Source: a bacterium
Lineage (GTDB): Bacteria > Spirochaetota > Spirochaetia > JABEVK01
Assembly (NCBI GenBank): GCA_021781625.1
Contig: JAJXWL010000152.1
Location: forward strand, 1 to 5,389
DNA: 5,389 nt
Direction: 5' to 3'
Both the position numbers and the translations under genes were made by a program. The notes below the pieces were generated by a model. That model saw only the letters and a program-made list of their open reading frames with translations, made no database searches and had not been told where the DNA came from. Shown in pieces: positions 1-4,937 of the stretch. Position 1 is the first letter of the stretch. Each line of letters begins with the position of its first letter.

Positions 1-670
1 GCGTCCGTACCGTGTCCAGGGGTTCGGCAGTTCGTCCTGCGGTAATCAGTACGGTTTTACCCGCCCAATCCCCCGATGTCGTCTTGGCTTTGACTTCGTT
101 AAGGCGGGTAATCACAGCCCGTAAAACTTCTTCTTCTGTCGCAAGCTTGGCTTTACCTTCTTCTAAGCGAGGCATCAATACAGTCACCCCTAACCGGCTA
201 AGTTTGGCAAGGTTTTCCCGGACCAACGGATGATCGTACATCGCTAAGTGCATAGCGGGCACTAAGATGAGGGGGAGTCCTTGCCCTAAACCCGTTGTCA
301 CAAAAGTAGTCACCGGAGTGTCATCGATTCCTGCCGCAATTTTACCGACCGTATTGGCCGTAGCCGGGGCAACTAAAATCAAATCGGCGGGTCGGCTGAC
401 ATTTCCCGCTAAAGCCACATGCTCAATGGCCCCTGAAAGTTCTAGGACAGGACGGTGGCCTGTGGCCCATTCCAACAGAGCAGGCCCAATCAATTGGGCG
501 GCTGATGCCGTCATAACGGGATATACTTCTGCCCCGTGCCGCATCAGTAAGCGTGCGAGATCGACCGCACGTACTACCGCCACCGAACCAGTCAGGCACA
601 GGACAATTCGTCGACCACGTAGCTCAGTGCCAGCCGTTCCCAAAATGTCTTCAGAGGGGTGGGGATTCAT
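1..670 (-). CDS. coaBC: CoaBC (Dfp): phosphopantothenoylcysteine decarboxylase / phosphopantothenate--cysteine ligase, archaeal type, 3' end cut by window edge
   Basis: This bifunctional cytosolic flavoenzyme joins cysteine to 4'-phosphopantothenate (CoaB, C-terminal) and decarboxylates the product to 4'-phosphopantetheine (CoaC, N-terminal). I translated 223 residues by hand without a stop before the edge; the family is usually about 400 residues. The FMN-binding flavoprotein domain spans about residues 18-180. Visible motifs are VLCLTGS (23-29), the probable catalytic His84 in AIEHVALAG, APATANT (101-107), PAMH (138-141) and the EEGKAKLA segment (160-167). The CoaB Rossmann domain starts at about 203 with GKTVLITAGRT and is then cut. 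PAMH instead of bacterial PAMN, and EGKAKLA instead of a Cys-containing LACG segment, fit the archaeal subfamily as I recall it. The ATG at 670 shares an ATGA overlap with the stop of the upstream decarboxylase gene and has a strong SD 7 nt before it. It is the last visible gene of the operon. Confidence 0.93.
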   Translation of the reverse strand, partial: MNPHPSEDILGTAGTELRGRRIVLCLTGSVAVVRAVDLARLLMRHGAEVYPVMTASAAQLIGPALLEWATGHRPVLELSGAIEHVALAGNVSRPADLILVAPATANTVGKIAAGIDDTPVTTFVTTGLGQGLPLILVPAMHLAMYDHPLVRENLAKLSRLGVTVLMPRLEEGKAKLATEEEVLRAVITRLNEVKAKTTSGDWAGKTVLITAGRTAEPLDTVRT

Positions 671-1833
671 GGAATTTCCTCCTGCAAATCCGACAAAAAG
701 CTTTTTAAAAGCTCGCGGGTCACGTGAGGCATCACCACCACACGAAAAAAATCGGTCCATTGTGAAAGGGCCCAACCTTTTTGCCGTAGTGCACCTGAAA
801 CCGCGTCAGCACGGCGTTTCAGAGGCCTTACGCCTACCACATTGAGGTCGGGCACCTTTAGCACAGGCTCAACCCCGGGGACTTGAGCCACCGCCGAGGT
901 AAACCAGTGGGCGTCTTCCATCGCTTGGCGAACAACCTCCACGTAACCTTGACGACCCAAATGCTTTAAAACAGCCCAAACAGCTGCAACCGAGGCTCCA
1001 GAACGGGTTCCCACCACGGTATTCAGCCGGGTGCGGCCCCCCGACAAATACCCAACCGCTAAAGCTGTGGCCTGTGCGGTTTGTTGGTCTTTCCACAAAA
1101 GGAGGCCGGAAGGTATGGGTCCTCGTCCCATTTTATGCGGGTCCAAGGCCACGGAGGAGTACCCCTCCCGCCATTGAAAAGCGGGAGCCGGAAAGCCTGC
1201 TTCTTGCAAAAAGGGTAAAACAAACCCACCGAAACTGGCGTCAATATGCAAGAACAAACCGGTTTGTACGGCCAGGTCGGCCCAGTCCGGCAAAGAATCG
1301 ACGGCCCCCAAGGCTGTCGAACCGGCTATTGCCACCAAGGCAAGGGTACGCTGATTCACGGCGCGGCGGGCGGCCTCAACATCGGCACGACCCCAAGCAT
1401 CAACAGGGATTTTTTTTAGCTTCAAGTCCAAAACGAGAGCGGCTTTTTCAAATGAAAAATGCGCAGATTCTGGAAGAATGACCTCGTCCTGTCCCTCACG
1501 GGCGAGTATTTTTGCCGTCCATAGGGCCAAAAGATTCGCTTCTGTCCCCCCCGTGACTAAACGCCCCGAGACCTGAGGACGTCCCCACCAGGTACCAACC
1601 AGCTGACAAATTTCTTCTTCTAATTCTACTAAACCAGGAACTAGCCCCGTATCGCCGATATTAGCGGCTAAGTAGCGCTGGTAGGCCTCGAAGGCGACGG
1701 GATGGGGGTCACCGCACATCGAACCTAAAATTCTTCCGCCTTTAAACGTCCAATCAGAGGCTAAGCGACGATCCAACTCGGACAAGACGGTGTCGAAGGG
1801 AAGTTCAAACGCGTTAATGGTAACTCTCCTCAT
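667..1833 (-). CDS. mfnA: MfnA-type PLP-dependent L-aspartate (or L-tyrosine) decarboxylase
   Basis: This is a group II PLP-dependent decarboxylase of the archaeal MfnA/ADC family. In this operon it most likely converts L-aspartate to beta-alanine for the next CoA step. From the ATG at 1833 it has 388 residues, near the usual ~380-400. Seen motifs: RILGSMCGDPHP (34-45), typical of MfnA; NIGDTGL (58-64); TGGTEAN (94-100), the PLP-phosphate region; His125, expected to stack on the PLP ring; HIDASFGG (196-203) with Asp198 pairing the pyridine nitrogen; and DPHKMG (231-236) with Lys234 as the Schiff-base lysine. It is not a pyruvoyl PanD. Archaeal relatives include tyrosine decarboxylases for methanofuran, so substrate is inferred from the neighbours. 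The gene overlaps panB by 20 nt and coaBC by 4 nt. The start is uncertain: there is no good SD before ATG 1833, whereas a GAGGAGAG stretch lies just inside it. Confidence 0.92.
   Translation of the reverse strand: MRRVTINAFELPFDTVLSELDRRLASDWTFKGGRILGSMCGDPHPVAFEAYQRYLAANIGDTGLVPGLVELEEEICQLVGTWWGRPQVSGRLVTGGTEANLLALWTAKILAREGQDEVILPESAHFSFEKAALVLDLKLKKIPVDAWGRADVEAARRAVNQRTLALVAIAGSTALGAVDSLPDWADLAVQTGLFLHIDASFGGFVLPFLQEAGFPAPAFQWREGYSSVALDPHKMGRGPIPSGLLLWKDQQTAQATALAVGYLSGGRTRLNTVVGTRSGASVAAVWAVLKHLGRQGYVEVVRQAMEDAHWFTSAVAQVPGVEPVLKVPDLNVVGVRPLKRRADAVSGALRQKGWALSQWTDFFRVVVMPHVTRELLKSFLSDLQEEIP
678..683 (-). promoter_or_regulatory. Shine-Dalgarno site of coaBC
   Basis: On the minus strand this reads AGGAGG, 7 nt before the ATG at 670. 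It lies inside the 3' end of the decarboxylase gene. With the ATGA stop/start overlap it fixes the coaBC start and points to translational coupling. Confidence 0.8.
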
Positions 1834-2596
1834 CCGACGGATACACACCGGCTTTGACATCTCGCACATAGCTTTCAATCACCGACCGCGCCAATTGCCC
1901 TACAGAGGGGTACCCTTGTGGTACAAACTTGGCTTTGCGGCCTTCAGTAAGCCCCAGTAAGTCATGAAAGACTAAAACCTGTCCGCTGGTATAGGGTCCT
2001 GCGCCAATTCCTATGGTAGGCAAAGAGTTTTCTTCAGTAATTTGCCGGGCCAAGGACAGTGGAACACATTCGAGTACGAGGCTAAAACAACCCGCTTGGG
2101 TTAAAGCTTTGGCGTCGTCACGAATCTTTTGAGCCTCTTCGGCTTCTTTTCCGTGAACTTTAAAACCCTGAGCCGTCTGAGGCAAAAGCCCCAAATGGCC
2201 CATGACGGGTATGCCTTCGGAAAGAAGAGCTTCGGCGACACCTGGTGGGTTGCCTTCAAACTTTACCGCGTGGGCTCCCGCCGCCATTAACAACCGCGCC
2301 GAGTCGATCGCGATTTCGGGCGTCTGGTACGTATTAGCCGGCAGGTCAGCGACGAGAGGAACTTTTGCCGTCCGCGCTGTCATGCGGGTATGATAGACCA
2401 TTTGCTCTAAGGTGACCTGCGAGGTCGAGTCTAAGCCCTGGACGACATTGCCCAGGCTATCCCCAACCAAAATCAGATCTATGCCGCCGGCACTGGCTAA
2501 GCTGGCTCCTGAGGCATCATAGGCCGTTAGCACGGCGAGCTTTTCGCCCAACCGCCAGCGAGTTAAAAAATTCTGCAAAGGTAAAGAGTTGACCAT
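1814..2596 (-). CDS. panB: 3-methyl-2-oxobutanoate (ketopantoate) hydroxymethyltransferase PanB
   Basis: PanB transfers a hydroxymethyl group from 5,10-methylene-tetrahydrofolate to 2-oxoisovalerate to form ketopantoate, the first committed step to pantoate. It is a cytosolic TIM-barrel enzyme of the PEP mutase/isocitrate lyase superfamily, 260 residues here against about 260-275 usually. Visible residues: VLTAYDA (22-28); the metal/substrate Asp46 in LVGDSLGN; Asp84 in VADLP; Glu114 in VKFEG; VMGHLGLLPQ (131-140); the catalytic Glu176 in LECVP; and GIGAGPYTSGQVLVFHDLLG (196-215). All expected active-site positions are present. I chose the ATG at 2596 because a GGAG lies 7 nt upstream; an in-frame TTG at 2614 is less likely. 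The gene begins 1 nt after the PPS stop and its end overlaps the decarboxylase gene by 20 nt. PanB is shared by the bacterial and archaeal routes, so by itself it does not discriminate between them. Confidence 0.96.
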   Translation of the reverse strand: MVNSLPLQNFLTRWRLGEKLAVLTAYDASGASLASAGGIDLILVGDSLGNVVQGLDSTSQVTLEQMVYHTRMTARTAKVPLVADLPANTYQTPEIAIDSARLLMAAGAHAVKFEGNPPGVAEALLSEGIPVMGHLGLLPQTAQGFKVHGKEAEEAQKIRDDAKALTQAGCFSLVLECVPLSLARQITEENSLPTIGIGAGPYTSGQVLVFHDLLGLTEGRKAKFVPQGYPSVGQLARSVIESYVRDVKAGVYPSDEESYH

Positions 2597-2597
2597 G

Positions 2598-3368
2598 CTA
2601 GAGCTCCGCTTCAAGGGCCAGTTCGGCTAAGCGCTCAGAATAAAACTTAAGGGCTTTGGCCAGGTTCTTTCCGTTGTCCCAAGTTCGGGCAGCTTCCCAA
2701 TGCGATCTCGGCAGAGTTTTCAGGTCCTTTGCCGCTTCAACAATGAGCGGAAGAGCTCGAACAATATTGTCCACGACGGTAACATGGGCCTTTTTCGCTG
2801 TACGAGAGAGCGGATTCAGGTCGATTGTCAGGACTTCTTTTCCCATGGCAACCAAAGCTTCGGTTCTGTCCCCATCTTCTAAAGGGACCAATACCACGTC
2901 AGCCACGAGGATTCCGCGTGGGTCAACCCGGCGGCGGCCATGAGTAATTTCTGGTATTTCCGCCGAAGCGGCCTCACCTACTCCATAGACTTCTTGAGCC
3001 CCTTCGGCTTTAAGTACCGCCTCAATGGCCTCTTCCCGGCCCGGAGCCCGATAAAACAAGTTAACTTCTAAGGGAGCGTTGACTTCTTTGGACAAAGCGA
3101 CCAACTCTCGGGGGACCAAGGCTGCGGCGTTACCATTGACCGAGATCACCGGATGGTGGGCTAAAAGCAAACGAGCCGCGACAGCCCTTGCCGCCTGACG
3201 ACCAAACTCCTGAGAAGCTTCACCTAAAAAGTAATCCAGACTTTCCCCACGACCGTGGGCAAACAAACCTGCTTCTGCAACGACTTTGTGGTGCAGGCCT
3301 TCTACAATTTTTTCGCGAAATAAAAGGGAATGATAGCGGGGATGTGTGGGGGGAATATCAAAAGACAT
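2598..3368 (-). CDS. pps: 4-phosphopantoate--beta-alanine ligase (archaeal phosphopantothenate synthetase, PPS)
   Basis: PPS ligates 4-phosphopantoate and beta-alanine using ATP to form 4'-phosphopantothenate. Together with pantoate kinase it replaces bacterial PanC plus pantothenate kinase. The 256 residues match the usual archaeal length of about 250-260 (former DUF137 family). Conserved blocks I recognise: IPPTHPRY (5-12), REKIVEG (18-24), AGLFAHGRGE (33-42), PVISVNGN (73-80), LEVNLFYR (100-107), VPLEDGDRTEAL (161-172), IDLNPLSRTA (182-191) and VVDNIVRA (198-205). The NLFYR, EDGDRTE and DLNPLSRTA blocks are hallmarks of the family, and I know no bacterial enzyme with this combination. The ATG at 3368 overlaps the end of the pantoate kinase gene by 11 nt and has an AGGAGGT about 10 nt upstream. 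It lies 1 nt before panB. Assignment to PPS is firm; activity is inferred from homology. Confidence 0.95.
   Translation of the reverse strand: MSFDIPPTHPRYHSLLFREKIVEGLHHKVVAEAGLFAHGRGESLDYFLGEASQEFGRQAARAVAARLLLAHHPVISVNGNAAALVPRELVALSKEVNAPLEVNLFYRAPGREEAIEAVLKAEGAQEVYGVGEAASAEIPEITHGRRRVDPRGILVADVVLVPLEDGDRTEALVAMGKEVLTIDLNPLSRTAKKAHVTVVDNIVRALPLIVEAAKDLKTLPRSHWEAARTWDNGKNLAKALKFYSERLAELALEAEL
2604..2607 (-). promoter_or_regulatory. Shine-Dalgarno site of panB
   Basis: The minus strand reads GGAG here, 7 nt before the ATG at 2596. It lies within the last codons of the PPS gene. It supports ATG 2596 over the TTG at 2614. Confidence 0.6.
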
Positions 3369-4308
3369 GGTTTACACGACCTCCTTGAGGGTCCAGGGCG
3401 GACACAAGAATACGACCCACCCCTTGAAAACTGGCTAAAAGCGACGTTACCTGCGAAACTAAGGTATTAGGCACTAACGTGTAGAGACCTTCTCCAAACA
3501 TCAGCATGGCCGTAGAAAAACCAGCACTCTGAAGTGACTGGGCGGCGGTTTTTAACTGTGGCGTCACTAACCCAGTACGCCGTGTAAACTCACCCGCCAA
3601 GGCTAGGTAGTTTTCTGGGTTTGGCTGGGACTGAAACTCCTTGAGAAGGTCTAAGCCCGCCGCATTGATCCGTCGGCGTAAGTCGGGCTCTTTTAAGAGC
3701 TTTGCCGTGGATAATGGCCCAAAGACCAGAAAAACCGCACGAAGATCATCTCGATACGGGACTAATTTCACGCGCCCTGTTCCCGGTGCCCCGGCCTCGA
3801 TGCGGATTTCCATTCCTCCAGTCAATTCACCCAAAACAGTTCCCAGACCCGTACCCGCTTCTAGCTCTGCCAAATGCGCTAGAGCCGCCGCTTCTTCACG
3901 AACTAAAGGGGTTCCTTCAAGAGCATTTAAGGCCAAAGCCAACGATAAAGCCCCTGCTCCGGAAGTTCCAAAGCCGCAACCTACGGGTAAAGTTGACGTC
4001 TGGGTAATTCGTAGCGGGGTGGACGACCTGAGACCCGTTTGCTCGTAAAAGAGCCTTACAACCGCACGCGATACCGGGACCTCAGCTTGTTGACCATTAA
4101 AACTATACACAGCCTGGAGAGAATTTGCCCCCACTGAGCGGGATTCAGAACTCAACCTACGGTCAAAGCTCAACTCAACCCGAGAGGTTACCCCTTGGGC
4201 AACACAAAACCCTGCCCCCAATGAACCTGTCCGGCGGGGGTCCGTGTCTTCATGAATGGAAAAAAGACCGGTGACGTGTCCCGGAGAAAAGGCCTCGGCT
4301 TCATTCAT
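3358..4308 (-). CDS. pok: Pantoate kinase (PoK), GHMP kinase superfamily
   Basis: PoK phosphorylates pantoate with ATP to 4-phosphopantoate, the substrate of PPS, the next gene. It is a soluble GHMP-type kinase (homoserine, mevalonate and galactokinase fold) of 316 residues, about the usual length for archaeal PoK. Seen: FSPGHVTGLF (7-16), the N-terminal archaeal PoK block; DPRRTGSLGAGF (23-34); the GHMP ATP-phosphate loop PVGCGFGTSGAGALS (108-122); and HLAELEAGTGLGTVLGEL (145-162) followed by the GG of TGGMEIRI. The GHMP loop proves a kinase of this superfamily. The FxPGHxTGxF and GTGLGxVxxEL blocks, and the PPS gene overlapping its end, point to pantoate kinase rather than mevalonate or homoserine kinase. 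The ATG at 4308 has AGGGA 7 nt upstream (4320-4316). It is the first gene of the operon and diverges from the exported-protein gene at 4404. Confidence 0.93.
   Translation of the reverse strand: MNEAEAFSPGHVTGLFSIHEDTDPRRTGSLGAGFCVAQGVTSRVELSFDRRLSSESRSVGANSLQAVYSFNGQQAEVPVSRAVVRLFYEQTGLRSSTPLRITQTSTLPVGCGFGTSGAGALSLALALNALEGTPLVREEAAALAHLAELEAGTGLGTVLGELTGGMEIRIEAGAPGTGRVKLVPYRDDLRAVFLVFGPLSTAKLLKEPDLRRRINAAGLDLLKEFQSQPNPENYLALAGEFTRRTGLVTPQLKTAAQSLQSAGFSTAMLMFGEGLYTLVPNTLVSQVTSLLASFQGVGRILVSALDPQGGRVNHVF
3379..3385 (-). promoter_or_regulatory. Shine-Dalgarno site of the PPS gene
   Basis: The minus strand reads AGGAGGT here, 10 nt before the ATG at 3368. This is a near-perfect anti-SD match placed inside the 3' end of the pantoate kinase gene, with slightly long spacing. 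It supports the start that overlaps the upstream gene by 11 nt. Confidence 0.7.
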
Positions 4309-4331
4309 CTAGTCATCCCTGTTAATAGTAG

Positions 4332-4350
4332 TCAAAAGCCTGGCTTTTGA
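4332..4350. repeat. 19-bp perfect palindrome, possible operator 1
   Basis: TCAAAAGCC, one central T, then GGCTTTTGA: both 9-base arms are exact reverse complements. A one-base centre is too short for an RNA hairpin loop without opening inner pairs, so a dimeric DNA-binding protein site is the more natural reading. It sits 24 bp upstream of the pok start codon. No known regulator is recognised. Confidence 0.6.
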
Positions 4351-4360
4351 AAAGTCTTAT

Positions 4361-4377
4361 GATTTTTTCAAAAAATC
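4361..4377. repeat. 17-bp perfect palindrome, possible operator 2
   Basis: GATTTTTT, one central C, then AAAAAATC: 8-base arms that are exact reverse complements. It overlaps the downstream half of the candidate -10 (4358-4363) and the expected start point of the plus-strand gene. Its core TTTTCAAAA (4365-4373) is the reverse complement of TTTTGAAAA at 4345-4353, centre to centre 20 bp. Low sequence complexity makes chance more likely than for the 19-bp palindrome. Confidence 0.45.
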
Positions 4378-4390
4378 CGATGGAATAAGA

Positions 4391-4395
4391 GGAGG
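4391..4395 (+). promoter_or_regulatory. Shine-Dalgarno site of the exported-protein gene
   Basis: GGAGG within the run AAGAGGAGG, 8 nt before the GTG at 4404. An in-frame GTG at 4395 overlaps this site itself and so cannot use it, which decides the start at 4404. Confidence 0.75.
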
Positions 4396-4403
4396 TGCTG
4401 ACG

Positions 4404-4937
4404 GTGAAGGGTGCTAGAAAACTCAGAGAACTTGCCATTTTAACACTTTCATTTTTAATGCTGGCCAATGGTGTCAGTCCTCTGTTGGCGGACCCCCCGA
4501 CTGTAGCCTTAGAGCCTACAACCAAAATCATTTACCCTAACCCAGCCGATGTCATACCCGGGCCGGTTCATTCTTCCACCACCAAATCTAGCCGCAAAGC
4601 TGAAGCTCCGCATTCCCCAGCTGTTGCACCCAAATCCTCACCAACGACCTCCAACACGCCCCCCCAAGTCATTCCTCCTCCCGCTTCTGCAAATAGTCCA
4701 GTTGCTTTGAACAAGGGGTGGTACCTTCGCTGGGGGCCCTGGAAAGACCGTGTTTCTGCCGTGGCCGCCTACCCCTCCGTTCAAGCCCAGTTCAGCGAAC
4801 CCGAGTTTAGCCATGCGACGTGGTTCCTCCAACTAGTAGGCACACAATGGACATTATTGGCCGGTCCTATTCCTGAGGCAGCCCTGGGACGAGCCCTTTG
4901 GGCTTCAGAACCTCCATCAGCAATTTATCGACCTTAA
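4404..4937 (+). CDS. Small exported protein with Pro/Ser/Thr-rich linker and possible SPOR-like C-terminal domain
   Basis: I do not recognise a named family. From GTG 4404 the protein has 177 residues. Residues 1-10 are basic (KGARKLREL), residues 11-28 are hydrophobic, and SPLLA before DPP (cleavage near 29/30) looks like a signal peptidase I site; no lipobox Cys is seen. Residues 30-103 are rich in Pro, Ser, Thr and Ala, like a disordered periplasmic or cell-wall linker. Residues 105-177 look folded: GWYLRWGPWKDRVSAVAAY, then a WFLQLVGTQWTLLAGPIPEAALGRAL segment. The W/Y-rich opening strand followed by a helix, and a late LLAGPI strand and turn, recall the SPOR peptidoglycan-binding fold, but the match is weak. 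The strong SD and signal peptide argue for a real gene. It diverges from the CoA operon and ends 4 bp from the convergent DUF188 gene. No link to CoA synthesis is visible. Confidence 0.75.
   Translation: MKGARKLRELAILTLSFLMLANGVSPLLADPPTVALEPTTKIIYPNPADVIPGPVHSSTTKSSRKAEAPHSPAVAPKSSPTTSNTPPQVIPPPASANSPVALNKGWYLRWGPWKDRVSAVAAYPSVQAQFSEPEFSHATWFLQLVGTQWTLLAGPIPEAALGRALWASEPPSAIYRP

What the first reader, a model, noticed from the sequence alone, without database searches (positions are those of the whole stretch)
1..4308. Archaeal-type CoA biosynthesis operon in an apparently bacterial genome
Seen: pok, pps, panB, an MfnA-type decarboxylase and coaBC follow one another on one strand. PoK and PPS replace PanC and pantothenate kinase, and the PLP enzyme replaces pyruvoyl PanD; this combination is established for archaea such as Thermococcus. 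The bacterial context is inferred from strong SD sites, a Sec signal peptide gene and a bacterial-form YaiI next door. A whole archaeal pathway packed in one bacterial operon suggests interdomain transfer or an unusual lineage-wide pathway choice.
Basis: partly seen in the sequence, partly recalled or inferred. Interest (0 to 1): 0.8.

Follow-up and report, generated by a model that had tools for sequence, protein, structure and literature searches.

The report
Archaeal coenzyme-A operon in spirochaetes
A group of spirochaete bacteria appears to make the essential cofactor coenzyme A with a set of genes borrowed from archaea, in place of the usual bacterial route.

Summary
In detail: one strand encodes pantoate kinase (PoK), phosphopantothenate synthetase (PPS), PanB, an MfnA-type PLP decarboxylase and the 5' part of CoaBC. 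The contig is spirochaetal. PPS is in 14 of 392 sampled Spirochaetota and 7 of 7 genomes of the nearest order. In 20 PPS+ bacterial genomes PoK is in 20, panC in 0, coaX and coaA over cut-off in 0; in 20 PPS- spirochaetes panC is in 15 and coaX in 17. All 16 PPS+ spirochaetes in an rpoB tree form one clade, and so do 12 concatenated operon rows, among archaea. Bathyarchaeia have the same gene order plus panE. Best reading: an ancient en-bloc interdomain transfer replaced PanC-PanK and was inherited vertically. The pathway is chimeric: CoaE is bacterial, the archaeal DPCK absent. Against: the PPS tree alone does not give one spirochaete clade, PanB is unresolved, the window's genome is not held, type II PanK was not searched, and activities are inferred.

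The parts
3358..4308 (-). pok: pantoate kinase, GHMP superfamily, 316 aa
   Evidence: A2 profile finds PoK 6jbc at E 8.7e-61; AlphaFold model pLDDT 93, best PDB match 6jbc E 6.1e-30, TM 0.85/0.90, next match E 4.3e-18; keeps 18 of 18 columns at least 95% conserved in 52 non-spirochaete PoKs
2598..3368 (-). pps: phosphopantothenate synthetase (4-phosphopantoate--beta-alanine ligase), 256 aa
   Evidence: PF02006 232.7 bits; NF010324 334.5 bits; solved PPS 3wdk E 2.4e-75; keeps 54 of 56 columns at least 95% conserved in 76 non-spirochaete PPSs
1814..2596 (-). panB: ketopantoate hydroxymethyltransferase (ATG 2596, one base after the PPS stop codon; the mechanical ORF runs to TTG 2614)
   Evidence: PF02548 282.2 bits, TIGR00222 246.9 over cut-off 207.55; start context
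667..1833 (-). MfnA-type PLP-dependent decarboxylase, inferred L-aspartate 1-decarboxylase making beta-alanine (start uncertain: ATG 1833, ORF open to 1878)
   Evidence: TIGR03812 364.6 bits over cut-off 299.4; PDB 3f9t MfnA and 6jy1 L-Tyr/L-Asp decarboxylase, E about 5e-58; keeps 71 of 89 columns conserved in 11 non-spirochaete rows, among them the lysine of DPHKMG (K231 of the aligned stretch; that it binds PLP is recalled)
1..670 (-). coaBC 5' part: phosphopantothenoylcysteine decarboxylase/synthetase, runs off the window
   Evidence: PF02441 102.6 bits, TIGR00521 183.1 bits for the fragment, under its cut-off of 219.7; ATG 670 overlaps the MfnA stop; archaeal side of the tree
4309..4394 (.). 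86-bp region between the divergent pok and signal-peptide gene; a promoter for the operon is inferred here, but no minus-strand sigma-70-like site lies in it (one such site lies at 4555-4527, inside the flanking gene)
4395..4937 (+). flanking gene, 180-aa protein with a signal-peptide-like start, not part of the pathway; conserved in place in the nearest relative
   Evidence: no Pfam or NCBIfam match; 56% identical in L114
4942..5388 (-). flanking yaiI/yqxD (DUF188) gene, open at the window edge; bacterial context
   Evidence: PF02639 109.6 bits; 75% identical in L114, 59% in L110, 56% in L002

Best explanation
The window comes from a member of Spirochaetota that makes coenzyme A by the archaeal branch. 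PanB makes ketopantoate. A reductase encoded elsewhere (PanE or IlvC, inferred) makes pantoate. PoK phosphorylates pantoate to 4-phosphopantoate. The MfnA-type enzyme decarboxylates aspartate to beta-alanine. PPS joins the two to give 4'-phosphopantothenate, so that neither PanC nor pantothenate kinase is needed. CoaBC makes 4'-phosphopantetheine, and bacterial enzymes (CoaE found in relatives, CoaD inferred) finish. The operon came en bloc from an archaeon whose cluster was ordered pok-pps-panE-panB-mfnA-coaBC, as in some of today's Bathyarchaeia, into the ancestor of one spirochaete clade. It displaced panC and coaX and was inherited vertically, with later loss or exchange of panE, mfnA and panB. 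Hydrothermota and Cloacimonadota appear to have acquired the cluster separately.
For: Gene identities. Bacterial host: nearest named proteins and MAGs are Spirochaetales/Spirochaetaceae, with synteny across the operon boundary into YaiI. Replacement: PPS+ genomes (17 Spirochaetota, 1 Hydrothermota, 2 Cloacimonadota) have PoK 20 of 20, panC 0 of 20, coaX 0 of 20 over cut-off, coaA 0 of 20 over cut-off; PPS- Spirochaetota (the first 20 listed of 378) have panC 15 of 20, coaX 17 of 20, PoK 0 of 20 but for one weak match. Fixed in its order: 7 of 7. Single origin: 16 of 16 PPS+ spirochaetes are one rpoB clade with 14 PPS- outside; PoK 19 of 19 one clade, SH-aLRT 92; ten operon MfnA rows in one set of 30 with 20 database rows, 100; CoaBC 11 of 11 one clade, on the archaeal side of a branch of 100 from 6 bacterial CoaBCs; concatenation 12 of 12, support 100/100. 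En bloc: identical order plus panE in Bathyarchaeia L009, L022 and L024. Not a binning artefact: PPS also lies on chromosome-size contigs of G377, G013 and G056 (4.65, 2.47 and 2.56 Mb). Chimeric end: archaeal DPCK 0 of 20, CoaE 19 of 20 PPS+ genomes.
Against: The window's genome is not held, so the absence of panC and PanK there is inferred from relatives, several of them fragmented MAGs. The PPS tree alone does not give one spirochaete clade: four Heimdall/Hodarchaeal rows fall among 17 spirochaete rows, and L106/L108 sit on a long branch elsewhere; holding all 19 together is not rejected (p-AU 0.493), and holding the 17 together gave a better likelihood than the free search found (p-AU 0.903). 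PanB's origin is unresolved. The deeper branching among spirochaete lineages differs between the concatenated operon tree and rpoB. The rpoB tree holds only 14 of the 378 PPS- genomes and lacks PPS+ G001 and G002. 5 of 20 PPS+ genomes show neither MfnA over cut-off nor PanD. PoK scores under the narrow NCBIfam cut-offs.
Confidence: 0.87

Rival explanations
1. The contig is archaeal, or archaeal DNA was binned or co-assembled with a bacterium.
For: PPS and the decarboxylase score as archaeal families, and 73 of the 80 loci kept from genome contigs are archaeal.
Against: The same contig carries YaiI next to the operon, and YaiI stands near pok in L114, L110 and L002 too; PPS lies on chromosome-size contigs of Spirochaetota (G377 4.65 Mb, G013 2.47 Mb, G056 2.56 Mb); PPS+ spirochaetes are one clade in rpoB and in the operon tree.
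Confidence: 0.03
2. The operon is redundant: the cells keep PanC and a pantothenate kinase, and these genes do something else, for example beta-alanine or tyramine metabolism.
For: The window genome cannot be searched; type II PanK was not tested; MfnA homologues can be tyrosine decarboxylases (3f9t).
Against: panC 0 of 20, coaX 0 of 20 and coaA 0 of 20 over cut-off in PPS+ genomes; PoK in all 20 of them; operon with panB and coaBC; no PPS+ genome has both MfnA over cut-off and PanD.
Confidence: 0.05
3. The spirochaete pathway is not a transfer from archaea but an ancient pathway shared by both domains and lost in most bacteria.
For: PPS also occurs in Hydrothermota and Cloacimonadota, and the spirochaete clade has a stem of 0.29 changes per column in the concatenated tree.
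Against: Only 14 of 392 Spirochaetota have PPS, and the 16 PPS+ rows are one rpoB clade with the 14 PPS- rows outside; Hydrothermota PoK and PPS group with Bathyarchaeia, not with spirochaetes; CoaBC lies among archaeal rows.
Confidence: 0.05
4. Several separate transfers of single genes from different archaea (PPS from Asgard-like, CoaBC from Nitrososphaeria-like donors) were assembled into an operon in spirochaetes.
For: Nearest neighbours differ by gene: Heimdall/Hodarchaea for PPS, a Thermoplasmata and a Cloacimonadota row for PoK, Nitrososphaeria for CoaBC.
Against: These placements come from quick trees with SH-aLRT of 80 to 96; the concatenation gives one spirochaete clade with 100/100; archaeal clusters already have the same order.
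Confidence: 0.12

Closest known systems
Archaeal CoA biosynthesis of Thermococcus kodakarensis (PoK-PPS branch; PMC6650551)
   Same: Same enzymes for pantoate to 4'-phosphopantothenate, with sequence and fold matches to solved PoK 6jbc and PPS 3wdk (that both are the T. kodakarensis proteins is recalled); a PLP decarboxylase supplies beta-alanine
   Different: Bacterial host; one compact operon; no GTP-dependent archaeal DPCK (0 of 20 PPS+ genomes) but CoaE (19 of 20); panE not in the operon. The paper's introduction calls PoK and PPS unique to the archaea
pok-pps-panE-panB-mfnA-coaBC clusters of Bathyarchaeia (L009, L022, L024)
   Same: Same gene order and strand
   Different: Has panE between pps and panB; archaeal host
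Bacterial PanB-PanC-PanD plus CoaX/CoaA pathway
   Same: Same start (ketopantoate) and end (4'-phosphopantothenate); shares PanB and CoaBC functions
   Different: panC, coaX and coaA not found over cut-off in 20 PPS+ relatives; order of phosphorylation and condensation reversed
PoK-PPS clusters in Candidatus Hydrothermota (L003) and Cloacimonadota (L011, L014)
   Same: Other bacteria with the same archaeal genes and no panC
   Different: Have panE in the cluster; Hydrothermota rows place with Bathyarchaeia and Cloacimonadota rows apart from the spirochaete clade, so probably separate acquisitions

Membership tests
Phosphopantothenate synthetase (PPS, PF02006) | Profile match over curated cut-off | tested here: met
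   232.7 bits against 26.4; NF010324 334.5 against 227. The narrower archaeal equivalog NF041123 is 298.9 against 300, just under
Phosphopantothenate synthetase (PPS, PF02006) | Conserved residues of the family kept | tested here: met
   54 of 56 columns that are at least 95% conserved in 76 non-spirochaete rows
Phosphopantothenate synthetase (PPS, PF02006) | ATP-dependent ligation of 4-phosphopantoate and beta-alanine | not testable with these tools
   needs enzyme assay
Pantoate kinase (PoK) | Closest solved structure is PoK and not another GHMP kinase | tested here: met
   profile E 8.7e-61 to 6jbc against 2.3e-7 for the next (mevalonate kinase); fold E 6.1e-30 against 4.3e-18
Pantoate kinase (PoK) | NCBIfam equivalog cut-off (NF040725 380 bits, NF041122 500 bits) | tested here: not met
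   131.7 and 123 bits; but a Bathyarchaeial PoK in an archaeal cluster (L024) also fails with 176.7 and 171.8, so I read these models as narrow subfamilies
Pantoate kinase (PoK) | Occurs with PPS and without PanC/PanK | tested here: met
   in relatives: 20 of 20 PPS+ genomes; type II PanK not tested
MfnA-type L-tyrosine/L-aspartate decarboxylase | TIGR03812 over cut-off | tested here: met
   364.6 against 299.4 bits
MfnA-type L-tyrosine/L-aspartate decarboxylase | Aspartate rather than tyrosine as substrate | tested here: inconclusive
   indirect: operon with CoA genes; no PPS+ genome has both MfnA over cut-off and PanD (12 and 3 of 20), Fisher p 0.049 without correction for kinship
Archaeal CoA pathway as a whole | PoK and PPS in place of PanC and PanK | tested here: met
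   in relatives only; type II PanK not tested
Archaeal CoA pathway as a whole | Archaeal GTP-dependent DPCK (PF04019) | tested here: not met
   0 of 30 genomes, 20 of them PPS+; CoaE in 19 of 20
Archaeal CoA pathway as a whole | Feedback inhibition at ketopantoate reductase rather than PanK | not testable with these tools
   reported for T. kodakarensis in PMC6650551; needs biochemistry

The most novel reading that the evidence does not exclude
In one step, a clade of spirochaetes swapped the committed and regulated middle of an essential universal cofactor pathway for an archaeal operon, and has run on a chimeric pathway ever since (archaeal to phosphopantetheine, bacterial at the end). At least two other bacterial phyla did so separately. 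PoK-PPS would then not be archaea-specific, and these bacteria would lack pantothenate kinase, the usual feedback-controlled step of the bacterial pathway, and possibly be unable to use external pantothenate.
Probability: 0.7. Interest if true: 0.72.

Novelty: new variant of a known kind. Interest (0 to 1): 0.62.

Why it matters
PoK and PPS are described as unique to archaea (PMC6650551, introduction). Here they stand in for PanC and pantothenate kinase in a bacterial clade that, by the name of P0168 and the matching contig length, includes Sediminispirochaeta bajacaliforniensis, so the replacement can be tested in culture. It is a clear case of an essential housekeeping segment being replaced across domains by an operon whose order is still visible in a possible donor group. 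It also seems to remove pantothenate kinase from these cells, which raises the question of how CoA level is controlled. Automatic annotation already names some of these proteins. In the listings of searches I saw no paper whose title or abstract start discusses it; the listings were capped (30 of 120, 15 of 84, 15 of 4,539), and most subscription journals and all bioRxiv preprints are not in the library.

Tried and rejected
Chance or mis-annotation: rejected, since five adjacent family matches recur in the same order in nine other loci. Archaeal contig or mis-binning: rejected. Redundancy with PanC/PanK: rejected for relatives as far as panC, coaX and coaA go. Donor naming: single-gene trees disagree, so I name only 'an archaeon with a Bathyarchaeia-like cluster'; the concatenation puts the spirochaete stem in an unresolved set with Bathyarchaeia, Nitrososphaeria and Cloacimonadota (94/97). 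PanB tree: no conclusion. The Fisher values are not used as probabilities, because the PPS+ spirochaetes are one clade. Promoter scan: no minus-strand site in the 86 bp before pok; one at 4555-4527 in the flanking gene; 3 sites in the region against a shuffled mean of 1.0. Paper searches for the pathway in spirochaetes gave nothing on it; the primary papers PMC2788864 and PMC3957723 are not held.

Rows dropped before counts: one search left out PoK rows under 220 model positions or 90 bits; one search lacks G001, G002 and G003, whose rpoB loci were not returned; one search left out 12 named rows (long branches and near-copies); one search left out CoaBC rows under 300 positions except the window and PanB rows under 180; one search kept 48 rows with at least 3 of 4 proteins. 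In one search the reference rows called archaeal in the script include the Hydrothermota and Cloacimonadota rows.
Full report
Observation. The window carries five minus-strand genes in the order pok (4308-3358), pps (3368-2598), panB (2596-1814), an MfnA-type decarboxylase (about 1833-667) and coaBC (670 to the edge, truncated), with overlaps or a one-base gap at the junctions I could place. PPS (PF02006, NF010324), PanB and the decarboxylase exceed curated cut-offs; CoaBC is a fragment below its full-length cut-off; PoK is below two narrow NCBIfam equivalogs, but so is the PoK of a Bathyarchaeial CoA cluster. PoK's identity rests on the profile match to solved PoK 6jbc (E 8.7e-61, next family 2.3e-7), on a confident AlphaFold model (pLDDT 93) whose best PDB match is 6jbc by a wide margin, and on keeping 18 of 18 highly conserved columns.

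Host. No whole genome is held for the window. Its PPS is 87% identical to that of genome G388 and its decarboxylase 68% identical to that of a 'Spirochaetales bacterium' MAG. The flanking YaiI and 180-aa gene are in the same place in L114 (G388; 75% and 56% identical); YaiI matches also lie near pok in L110 and L002, with weak matches of the 180-aa gene. I take the contig to be spirochaetal.

Distribution. PPS (PF02006) is in 14 of 392 Spirochaetota genomes drawn from the phylum and in 7 of 7 of G388's order, five of which are also among the 14. That L019 and L055 are termite-gut MAGs is recall from their isolate codes.

Replacement. Twenty PPS+ bacterial genomes (17 Spirochaetota, 3 others; six of the seven order members, G399 not tested) were compared with 20 PPS- Spirochaetota, the first 20 listed of the 378. 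PoK: 20 of 20 against 0 of 20 (one weak match, E 3.8e-5). panC: 0 against 15. coaX over cut-off: 0 (one match of 19.4 bits below cut-off in G003) against 17. coaA over cut-off: 0 of 40, nine genomes with weak matches, two of them PPS+. panD: 3 against 15. MfnA over cut-off: 12 against 0 (one PPS- genome has a 278-bit match below cut-off). No PPS+ genome has both MfnA over cut-off and PanD; five (G002, G006, G007, G245, G388) show neither, of which G388's contig ends inside panB. Archaeal DPCK: 0 of 30 genomes, 20 of them PPS+. CoaE: 19 of 20 PPS+ (none in G002, only a fragment in G001).

History. In an rpoB tree of 30 Spirochaetota the 16 PPS+ rows are one side of a branch with SH-aLRT 100, and the 14 PPS- rows lie outside (G001 and G002 not in the tree). 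PoK: 19 of 19 spirochaete rows together (92). MfnA: the ten operon rows fall in one set of 30 with 20 database rows (100). CoaBC: 11 of 11 together (100), nested among archaea and separated from 6 other bacterial CoaBCs by a branch of 100; no CoaBC of a PPS- spirochaete was in hand. PPS alone: 17 of 19 with four Heimdall/Hodarchaeal rows inside, two elsewhere on a long branch; one clade of 19 is not rejected (p-AU 0.493), and the 17 held together score better than the free tree found (p-AU 0.903). PanB: unresolved. The careful concatenated tree of 48 rows gives one spirochaete clade at 100/100, in a set with Bathyarchaeia, Nitrososphaeria and Cloacimonadota at 94/97, away from Asgard archaea at 88/95. 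Within the window's order both trees separate G103/G293 from the rest; deeper, the operon tree joins G245 and G006 with G323, G192 and G274 (96/83), whereas rpoB joins G377 and G383 with the latter three (92), so agreement is partial. Hydrothermota PPS and PoK group with Bathyarchaeia, which suggests a separate transfer.

Operon. Of 18 spirochaete loci laid out, ten, the window included, have pok-pps-panB-mfnA-coaBC; L114 is cut by the contig end; L002 lacks mfnA; L107, L019 and L055 have pok-pps-coaBC, with panB after it in L107 and L055; L102, L103 and L105 have pok-pps alone. In L102 and L103 a panB gene and a short CoaBC-like gene stand several kb away, and panD lies near by. Bathyarchaeia L009, L022 and L024 and Cloacimonadota L014 (pok cut at the contig edge) have the same order with panE (PF02558 and PF08546) between pps and panB. 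The simplest course is one transfer of an archaeal six-gene cluster, loss of panE from the operon, and later exchange of the beta-alanine and panB modules, with pok-pps as the part always kept in the loci seen. Steps shown: gene content, order, anti-occurrence in relatives, clade structure. Steps inferred: enzyme activities, the pantoate-forming reductase, CoaD, the donor and the direction (archaea to bacteria, from archaeal breadth against a narrow bacterial clade).

Names. G383 contig 23 (68,871 bp) has the length of the contig of P0168, named pantoate kinase [Sediminispirochaeta bajacaliforniensis], and G388 contig 48 (16,802 bp) that of P0123, 'MAG: GHMP kinase [Spirochaetales bacterium]'. 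That G377, G013 and G056 have the sizes of S. smaragdinae and Spirochaeta thermophila genomes is recall, not a test.

Literature. PMC6650551 (introduction read whole, 12 passages seen; [quoted passage not shown] kodakarensis. Of the 13 held papers with 'pantoate kinase' (listing only) none is about a bacterial pantoate kinase by title. The collection lacks most subscription journals and all bioRxiv preprints, so 'not in print' is not claimed.

Noticed in passing
window 4395-4937 (+): A 180-aa protein with a signal-peptide-like start, proline-rich linker and a C-terminal stretch that looks SPOR-like by eye (recalled resemblance, no Pfam hit); divergent from pok and conserved in place in L114, weakly matched in L110 and L002.
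   Followed up: partly
L102, L103, L105 (G013, G056, G149): Three PPS+ spirochaetes have pok-pps without mfnA and have the pyruvoyl panD; in L102/L103 panB groups weakly with PanB of PPS- spirochaetes.
   Followed up: partly
L002 5585-5622: In this member of the window's order the operon runs panB directly into coaBC, with no MfnA match and no panD match in the genome; its source of beta-alanine is unknown.
   Followed up: no
L003, L011, L014: Hydrothermota and Cloacimonadota MAGs carry archaeal-type clusters (L003 pok-pps-panE-panB; L014 pok-pps-panE-panB-mfnA-coaBC; L011 the same from pps on) and no panC, apparently separate acquisitions.
   Followed up: partly
G010, G016, G023, G026, G028: Five of 20 PPS- Spirochaetota also lack panC; G016 and G028 still have coaX, suggesting pantothenate auxotrophy, while G010, G023 and G026 show neither.
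   Followed up: no
L059 10370-10837: In one Bathyarchaeial cluster only a C-terminal fragment of the decarboxylase was seen in an open frame where relatives have the whole gene.
   Followed up: no
L019 306-1259, L055 2946-3896: These spirochaete loci have a PanE-like gene divergent from pok (85-88 bits), the only PanE-like genes seen near the spirochaete operons held.
   Followed up: no
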